From NCBI RefSeq assembly GCF_002878395.1, contig NC_061122.1, positions 82,369,455 to 82,433,454 on the forward strand: DNA of 64,000 nucleotides, written 5' to 3'. The DNA comes from Capsicum annuum. Lineage: Eukaryota; Streptophyta; Magnoliopsida; Solanales; Solanaceae. Of the stretch, positions 40,231 through 41,703 are shown in pieces (the first letter of the stretch is position 1; each line of letters opens with the position of its first letter). The notes below the pieces were generated by a model. It saw nothing but the letters and a program-made list of their open reading frames with translations. It did no database searches and was not told the origin of the DNA. The position numbers and the translations under genes are program-made.

Positions 40231-41703
40231 GTCAAATGTACCTAAACGAGCAAAAAAAAACAGCAAACAAAAAAAACCTATAAAATGAGCAAACAAGTTA
40301 GTTCAAAAGTCTCACTTCACTCACACTCAACCTCACCTCACACTTGGCTTCACAAGTGTTGGAGAATTGGCAATACTTGGCAAGTTACTTGAAAGGTGAG
40401 AAGCTTTTGATCGAAATCAATTTTTGTTTGAAATGACTCAAATAAAGTGATGCAAGGACTTGAACCAACAAAATACTACGACTTAAAAATGAGAAAAACA
40501 CACAAAAAATCAAATACATGAAACAAACAGACCCAAGACTAATTATCAACCTAGTAAGTAGTTACTAGTTTGCTAATTAGTGATAAAGTTTAACACACAA
40601 GGAACTAGAATAAAAAAAAAAGAGAGAAACTAAGAAAAATCTAATTTTAGAGATGAATTTGGTTGATCATAAGTGATGACGTGAAACTACGTGGTAGGTT
40701 GTCTTTTTTTTTTGAATTTTTCATTTCCCAATATCATGTTTCGGCCAAGTATCAACTTTGGGAAGAAGAATTTTCAGATTTGAGCGGGGAAATAAACAAT
40801 TTGGAGCCCTTTTAATCCTCTAAATGAAATTCAAATGAAATGGTCCCCCCTCCCCAATTAATTACAAGTGTATTTGATTTGTCCTTTGGTCCCCCCTTCT
40901 TTTGGATGGATCCCTGTAGACCATCCCCATGGGGGTGGTGAAGGGAGAGCCCCAATTGGTAGAAAAAAACCCACAACCCCTTGGGGTTATCCTGCACTTG
41001 GAAGAAGAAGTAGAAAAAGGAATAAATATAGTGATAATTTGATTCTTCGTCGCCGTAGTAAATAGGAGAGAAAATCGAATTTAATTCTTTGTTTTTACAA
41101 AAACTTTACAAAAATACTAGGGAATATTCTTGGACAAACAACAAGCACACTCTCTTTATTCCCTTCTTTTGGATCAAACAAACACTTTGAATAGTCTTCT
41201 TCACTAAGATATGAAGATCATGGATGAATAAGATGAATATTCAAGTGTTGACCAAGTTTGACCAACAAGCAAATGAACTCTAGATCTGAATTTTCTTTTA
41301 GACCTAGGTTCCTTAGGCCAAGACAAACACAACCAACATAAAATCATCCATAAAATGCCACAAAAAAGATGACCAAAAATGAGATCCCACCTCAAAAGCT
41401 TCAAACAAAGCACAACAATGGTGGATCTAGCTCAAATTCAACCAAAACTTCACTCTAAAATTAGATCTAGACATCCTCGGTGTTAGAGAACAAGAATCTA
41501 ACAAAAGAAACCTTCAAAACAAAGTAAAAATCTTGTATATCTAAGACTCTAATTTCGGATCTAACACAAGACAACACTAGACACCATTTTTTTTTTGTAT
41601 TTTCTGATTTTTGACTCCTTTTTCTTGAGATTTTCTAAATAAGAACACTAAAACAAAGATTTAGGGATGTTGGAACAACCCTAACCAAGGCTTTGATATA
41701 AAA
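40231..41703 (-). other. Leader of the Ty3 element with primer-binding site
   Basis: Non-coding 5' leader, long (1.47 kb). The minus strand next to the LTR reads 'tttatatcaaagccttgg' (41,703-41,686), a diverged initiator-Met tRNA primer site. The segment at 40,830-41,180 parallels 19,980-20,180 of the pol-less element apart from the plastid insert. Confidence 0.75.
40910..41116 (+). other. rpl2: Plastid DNA insert: 3' end of rpl2 and start of rpl2-rps19 spacer
   Basis: The plus strand encodes PVDHPHGGGEGRAPIGRKKP, TTPWGYPALGRRSRKRNKYS and DNLILRRRSK, ending at a stop at 41,063-41,065. This is the C-terminus of chloroplast ribosomal protein L2. The bases after the stop ('taggagagaaaatcgaattt') continue as the plastid rpl2-rps19 spacer. 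About 50 codons remain uninterrupted. The related leader at 19,980-20,180 lacks this piece, so it was inserted into the retroelement lineage or into this copy. It is a fragment with no start codon and no nuclear expression signals, so not a functional gene. In the plastid, L2 is a large-subunit ribosomal protein near the peptidyl-transferase centre. Confidence 0.93.

What the first reader, a model, noticed from the sequence alone, without database searches (positions are those of the whole stretch)
40910..41116. Plastid rpl2 fragment captured inside the leader of a Ty3 retrotransposon
About 50 C-terminal codons of chloroplast ribosomal protein L2 and the following spacer are embedded between gag and the primer-binding site of the full-length element at 34,421-42,392. 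The reading frame is uninterrupted to its natural stop, although the host element carries several stops. The related leader of the pol-less element (about 19,980-20,180) aligns on both sides ('cttttggatg' before, 'ggaatattct' after) and lacks the insert, which brackets the junctions. Either plastid DNA entered this copy after insertion, or the family transduced plastid sequence and spread it.
Basis: partly seen in the sequence, partly recalled or inferred. Interest (0 to 1): 0.75.

Follow-up and report, generated by a model that had tools for sequence, protein, structure and literature searches.

The report
Chloroplast DNA fragment in dead retrotransposon
A 203-letter scrap of chloroplast DNA landed once, fairly recently, inside an old broken mobile element in a pepper-like nuclear genome, a common kind of event in plants and not a sign that the element spreads chloroplast genes.

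Summary
Window 40912-41114 (+) is 203 bp of plastid rpl2 (last 50 codons, stop, 49 bp of spacer) in the leader of a full-length Ty3-type element on the minus strand (5-bp target duplication at 34416-34420 / 42393-42397). The host genome is held (3.21 Gb, probably Capsicum annuum UCD10X). Each retroelement/plastid junction was found once in it at up to 3 mismatches; the empty form of the site was found 57 times. All 29 fetched sister leaders lack the insert. Against them the insertion removed 7-8 bp, made no target duplication and shares 0-1 bp at the junctions, as filler DNA at a repaired double-strand break does. The insert equals the majority base of 29 other nuclear plastid copies at 203 of 203 positions, whereas the element's LTRs differ by K2P 0.083; an insert as old as the element should carry about 8.4 substitutions (P of none 2e-4, equal rates assumed). 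So this is a single young NUPT in an old, decayed element; transduction and spread are not supported. It is ordinary. Still open: an assembly chimera (no reads available), and whether the DNA came straight from the plastome or through plastid-derived DNA in the mitochondrial genome.

The parts
40912..41114 (+). Nuclear plastid DNA insertion (NUPT): last 50 codons of rpl2, stop codon, 49 bp of the rpl2-rps19 spacer
   Evidence: Translation, chloroplast uL2c match, 39 further matches in the genome among the 40 of 232 candidates scored, 203 of 203 identity to the majority base of the 29 of those 39 that were fetched
40900..40911 (-). Left junction side: element leader, last 12 bases before the insert
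   Evidence: Same 12 bases in 24 of 29 sister leaders; junction 28-mer found once in the genome
41115..41129 (-). Right junction side: element leader resumes; 7-8 bp of the sister sequence are missing between the two sides
   Evidence: Comparison with 29 sister leaders; junction 27-mer found once
41704..42392 (-). 5' LTR of the host element
   Evidence: LTR pair alignment, 688 compared sites, 54 differences, K2P 0.083 (the alignment ran one base past the LTR ends)
34421..35107 (-). 3' LTR of the host element
34416..34420 (.). Target-site duplication TGTGG, first copy
   Evidence: read from the flanks printed
42393..42397 (.). Target-site duplication TGTGG, second copy
   Evidence: read from the flanks printed
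36718..37506 (-). Reverse transcriptase piece of the host element (pol is broken into several frames)
   Evidence: Pfam RVT_1 E 3.5e-27
35209..35628 (-). Integrase C-terminal piece, downstream of RT (Ty3 order)
   Evidence: Pfam SH3_Tf2-1 E 5.3e-16; Integrase_p58_C below its cut-off
39895..40302 (-). ORF in gag position; no Pfam match
   Evidence: gag role inferred from position only

Best explanation
A linear scrap of plastid DNA (rpl2 3' end) was used as filler when a double-strand break in the leader of an already resident, decaying Ty3-type element was closed by non-homologous end joining. Shown: the empty site in sisters, loss of 7-8 bp, no duplication, 0-1 bp shared at the junctions, no second copy found, zero divergence of the insert from the plastid-type majority sequence. 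Inferred: the break, the end-joining machinery, and the route of the DNA (plastid directly, or through plastid-derived DNA in the mitochondrion; the confidence given covers both routes). No function in the element is indicated: the piece is antisense, holds only the end of rpl2, and no spread was found.
For: Junction patterns, up to 3 mismatches: 1 hit each, both this locus; the empty-site pattern under the same rule: 57 hits, 0 for the reversed control. 29 of 29 fetched sister leaders have no insert. The insert equals the majority base of 29 other copies at 203 of 203 positions and is identical to one of them, L002. LTR K2P 0.083; expected substitutions in 203 bp over that time 8.4, P(0) 2.2e-4, equal rates assumed. 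95% upper bound on insert divergence 0.0148: under 1.1 My at 1.3e-8 per site per year or under 2.1 My at 7e-9, against 3.2 or 5.9 My for the element (both rates recalled). Filler-DNA integration with blunt ends or 1-7 bp micro-identity is the described mode for organelle DNA (PMC7037861, passages).
Against: No plastome, reads or second assembly were available, so the true plastome sequence, a chimera and polymorphism could not be tested; the majority sequence of nuclear copies is only a stand-in for the plastome. Only 40 of 2309 first-look candidates of the leader and 40 of 232 of the insert were scored, and the pattern searches allow 3 mismatches, so copies with strongly decayed junctions could be missed. 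Zero divergence is also what an assembly artefact would show.
Confidence: 0.92

Rival explanations
1. Transduction: the element picked up plastid RNA or DNA during reverse transcription (template switching), and the insert came in with the element or was spread by it.
For: The insert lies within the leader, which the element transcribes (inferred), and amplification of a plastid piece together with nearby Ty3 elements has been proposed for papaya rps15 (PMC7037861, passage).
Against: No second copy with either junction against 57 empty sites; the insert looks much younger than the LTR pair.
Confidence: 0.02
2. Assembly artefact: high-copy plastid reads were misjoined into this repeat.
For: The genome is a draft in 80,840 contigs, apparently from one linked-read library (PMC5798813, title and passages); zero divergence from the plastid-type sequence is what an artefact would show too.
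Against: No Ns in the 64-kb window; the junctions share 0-1 bp, whereas a graph misjoin needs a long shared word; two false joins 203 bp apart with a small deletion would be needed (inference).
Confidence: 0.05
3. A variant of the best explanation: the fragment reached the nucleus through the mitochondrial genome, which in pepper holds much plastid-derived DNA.
For: C. annuum mitogenomes hold 53-57 kb of plastome sequence, 19-21 kb of it from the inverted repeat (PMC6124701, table passage); that the rpl2 end lies in the inverted repeat is recalled.
Against: Nothing specific: the 203 bp carry no mitochondrial flank. The direct route is simpler.
Confidence: 0.15

Closest known systems
NUPTs (nuclear integrants of plastid DNA)
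   Same: Short plastid piece, near-blunt junctions, small target deletion, no duplication; its sister NUPTs in the genome decay mainly by C>T and G>A (118 of 197 substitutions)
   Different: Nothing found but the precise landing place
Papaya rps15 NUPT amplified near Ty3 elements (PMC7037861, passage only)
   Same: Plastid piece in or near a Ty3-type element
   Different: There proliferated (23 times per the review); here one copy found
Gene-transducing LTR elements such as maize Bs1 (recalled)
   Same: Foreign sequence inside an LTR element
   Different: Here no other copy with the same junctions was found, and the insert looks younger than the element

Membership tests
NUPT | Sequence of plastid origin in a nuclear chromosome | tested here: met
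   chloroplast uL2c match; placed in contig C12 of 233 Mb
NUPT | Non-homologous junctions, with the empty site seen in related sequence | tested here: met
   29 sister leaders, 7-8 bp lost, 0-1 bp shared
NUPT | Identity to the species' own plastome | tested here: inconclusive
   plastome not held; majority base of 29 other nuclear copies used instead, 203 of 203
Transduced sequence of an LTR element | Several element copies with identical insert junctions | tested here: not met
   1 hit for each junction
Ty3/Gypsy element (host) | RT upstream of integrase, between paired LTRs with a target duplication | tested here: met
   RVT_1, then a Tf2-1-like SH3 match in integrase-end position, on the minus strand; LTRs and 5-bp duplication; integrase core not tested

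The most novel reading that the evidence does not exclude
The insert arose by template switching onto a plastid transcript during reverse transcription in a recent copy whose LTRs differ for other reasons (for example recombination between elements), making this a single-copy transduction of organelle RNA by a Ty3-type element.
Probability: 0.01. Interest if true: 0.55.

Novelty: new member of a known kind. Interest (0 to 1): 0.1.

Why it matters
Little by itself: one more young plastid fragment in a plant nuclear genome. Its use is as a clean example in which dozens of sister sites give the pre-insertion sequence, so that the repair scar can be read almost to the base. It also shows that a plastid-retroelement chimera seen in one window needs a genome-wide junction count before it is called capture or transduction.

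Tried and rejected
Transduction and spread: not supported by the junction counts. A mobile cassette of about 206 bp: the many hits with the same ends (query 50-255) looked like a mobile unit at first, but those ends are only the ends of this insert; in the 29 other copies printed plastid-type sequence goes on beyond the match on at least one side. Plasmid and phage collections gave one weak bacterial rplB hit and none; a viral-contig scan with a 70-base exact pattern gave 0; a tRNA scan of the window gave 0. Literature: five answered paper searches; I saw the listings, and passages of four papers (PMC5798813, PMC7037861, PMC3989485, PMC6124701), none read whole. None of the listings showed a paper on this insert, but no claim of absence from print is made. 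A planned search for a six-species NUPT/NUMT survey failed on input and was dropped.

Full report
What was checked. The window is G000:C12:82369455-82433454 of a 3,211,630,282-base genome in 80,840 contigs. Size and contig lengths fit Capsicum annuum UCD10X: the paper reports 3.21 Gb, 83,391 scaffolds before anchoring and a pseudomolecule N50 of 227.2 Mb (PMC5798813, passages), and contig C7 here is 227,195,441 bases. The species is an inference.

The fragment. Window 40912-41114 reads as the last 50 codons of rpl2 (40913-41062), a stop and 49 bp of spacer; the 50 residues match chloroplast uL2c 222-271 at E 2.5e-28. It sits in the leader of a full-length element on the minus strand: LTRs 34421-35107 and 41704-42392, 5-bp duplication TGTGG, reverse transcriptase before the integrase end, and pol spread over broken frames.

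Copies of the fragment. In the own genome 40 of 232 first-look candidates were scored and all 40 matched; one is this locus and 39 are others at 87-100%. With a query running 49 bases into the element on the left and 46 on the right, none of the 39 matches begins before query position 50 and none ends beyond 262; four rows run to 262, seven bases past the insert, where the plastid spacer by chance resembles the element. Of the 39, 29 were fetched (L002-L030). Their flanks are plastid-type as a rule: upstream rpl2, downstream the rps19 start, as printed; I translated L004, L006 and L009 downstream and L009 upstream. Exceptions: L030 leaves the plastid sequence within the spacer, L025 stops at a contig end, L002 is a short mosaic. 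Of 227 pairs with a match, 203 match over more than 230 bases, up to 3.2 kb, at about 85-99%. They look like ordinary NUPTs (or plastid DNA that came through mitochondria).

Junction test. The left-junction 28-mer and the right-junction 27-mer, with up to 3 mismatches, were each found once, here. The empty-site 36-mer was found 57 times (35 forward, 22 reverse; reversed control 0) under the same rule, so the pattern search does find family members.

Empty site. Of 2309 leader candidates 40 were scored (41 matches) and 30 fetched; one is this locus. All 29 others lack the insert. Typically they read ...ggatggat-taggaata-tactaggg..., and here the middle is replaced by the plastid piece. Left junction: no shared base. 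Right junction: one shared A. Hence 7-8 bp lost and no duplication. Several sisters differ by single bases at the site; L051 lacks part of the left side, L048 one base of the middle, and L062 diverges shortly to the right. These are empty too.

Age. The insert equals the majority base of the 29 other copies at all 203 positions (a few of the 29 cover only part) and is identical to L002. The 29 copies carry 197 substitutions in 5822 aligned bases, 118 of them C>T or G>A, the usual decay of methylated nuclear DNA (recalled). The LTR pair differs at 54 of 688 sites, K2P 0.083. At the same rate a 203-bp insert as old as the element should carry 8.4 changes; P(0) is 2.2e-4. So the insert most likely came after the element. 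With recalled rates of 1.3e-8 or 7e-9 the element is about 3.2 or 5.9 My old and the insert under 1.1 or 2.1 My (95% bound).

Mechanism. Loss of a few bases, no duplication and almost no shared bases fit filler DNA at a double-strand break closed by end joining, the mode described for organelle DNA (PMC7037861, passages). The break and the machinery are inferred. The same review cites papaya rps15 as a NUPT that proliferated, probably with nearby Ty3 elements; that is the precedent for the rival reading, and it is not met here. Retroelements as landing places are expected where most of the genome is repeats: the abstract start of PMC13025463 gives over 80% transposable elements for Capsicum (listing). 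L002, the other identical copy, is likewise a short plastid piece between two halves of a repeat.

Limits. No plastome, mitogenome, reads or second pepper assembly could be searched. Source compartment, polymorphism and assembly error are therefore open; pepper mitogenomes hold 53-57 kb of plastid-derived DNA, 19-21 kb from the inverted repeat (PMC6124701, table passage).

Verdict. A correct and well-framed observation; the thing itself is most likely an ordinary young NUPT in an old Ty3-type element.

Noticed in passing
L002 about 1478-1825 (G000:C7, near 150,394,500): A mosaic plastid insertion: the rpl2-rps19 piece is joined directly to a stretch whose translation looks like ATP synthase alpha subunit (name recalled, not searched), and the whole interrupts a repeat whose two halves lie about 40-60 bp apart in the relatives I looked at.
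   Followed up: partly
L003-L029: Many nuclear copies of the rpl2-rps19 region, about 85-99% alike pairwise over up to 3.2 kb, with two classes of downstream flank among the plus-strand loci (L017, L020, L021, L023 against the rest), perhaps the two inverted-repeat junctions of the plastome.
   Followed up: partly
window 44228-45799 and 49323-50892: A second long direct-repeat pair, about 5.1 kb apart, 87-94% alike in its blocks; looks like the LTRs of another element.
   Followed up: no
window 34133-34401 and 47557-47826: Inverted repeat, 93-94% complementary; one arm ends about 14 bp from the host element's left target duplication, the other lies between the two halves of the second long repeat pair.
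   Followed up: no
window 11386-16022: Three copies of a segment of about 0.76 kb, two in tandem (14501-16022) and one about 3.1 kb away (11386-12150).
   Followed up: no
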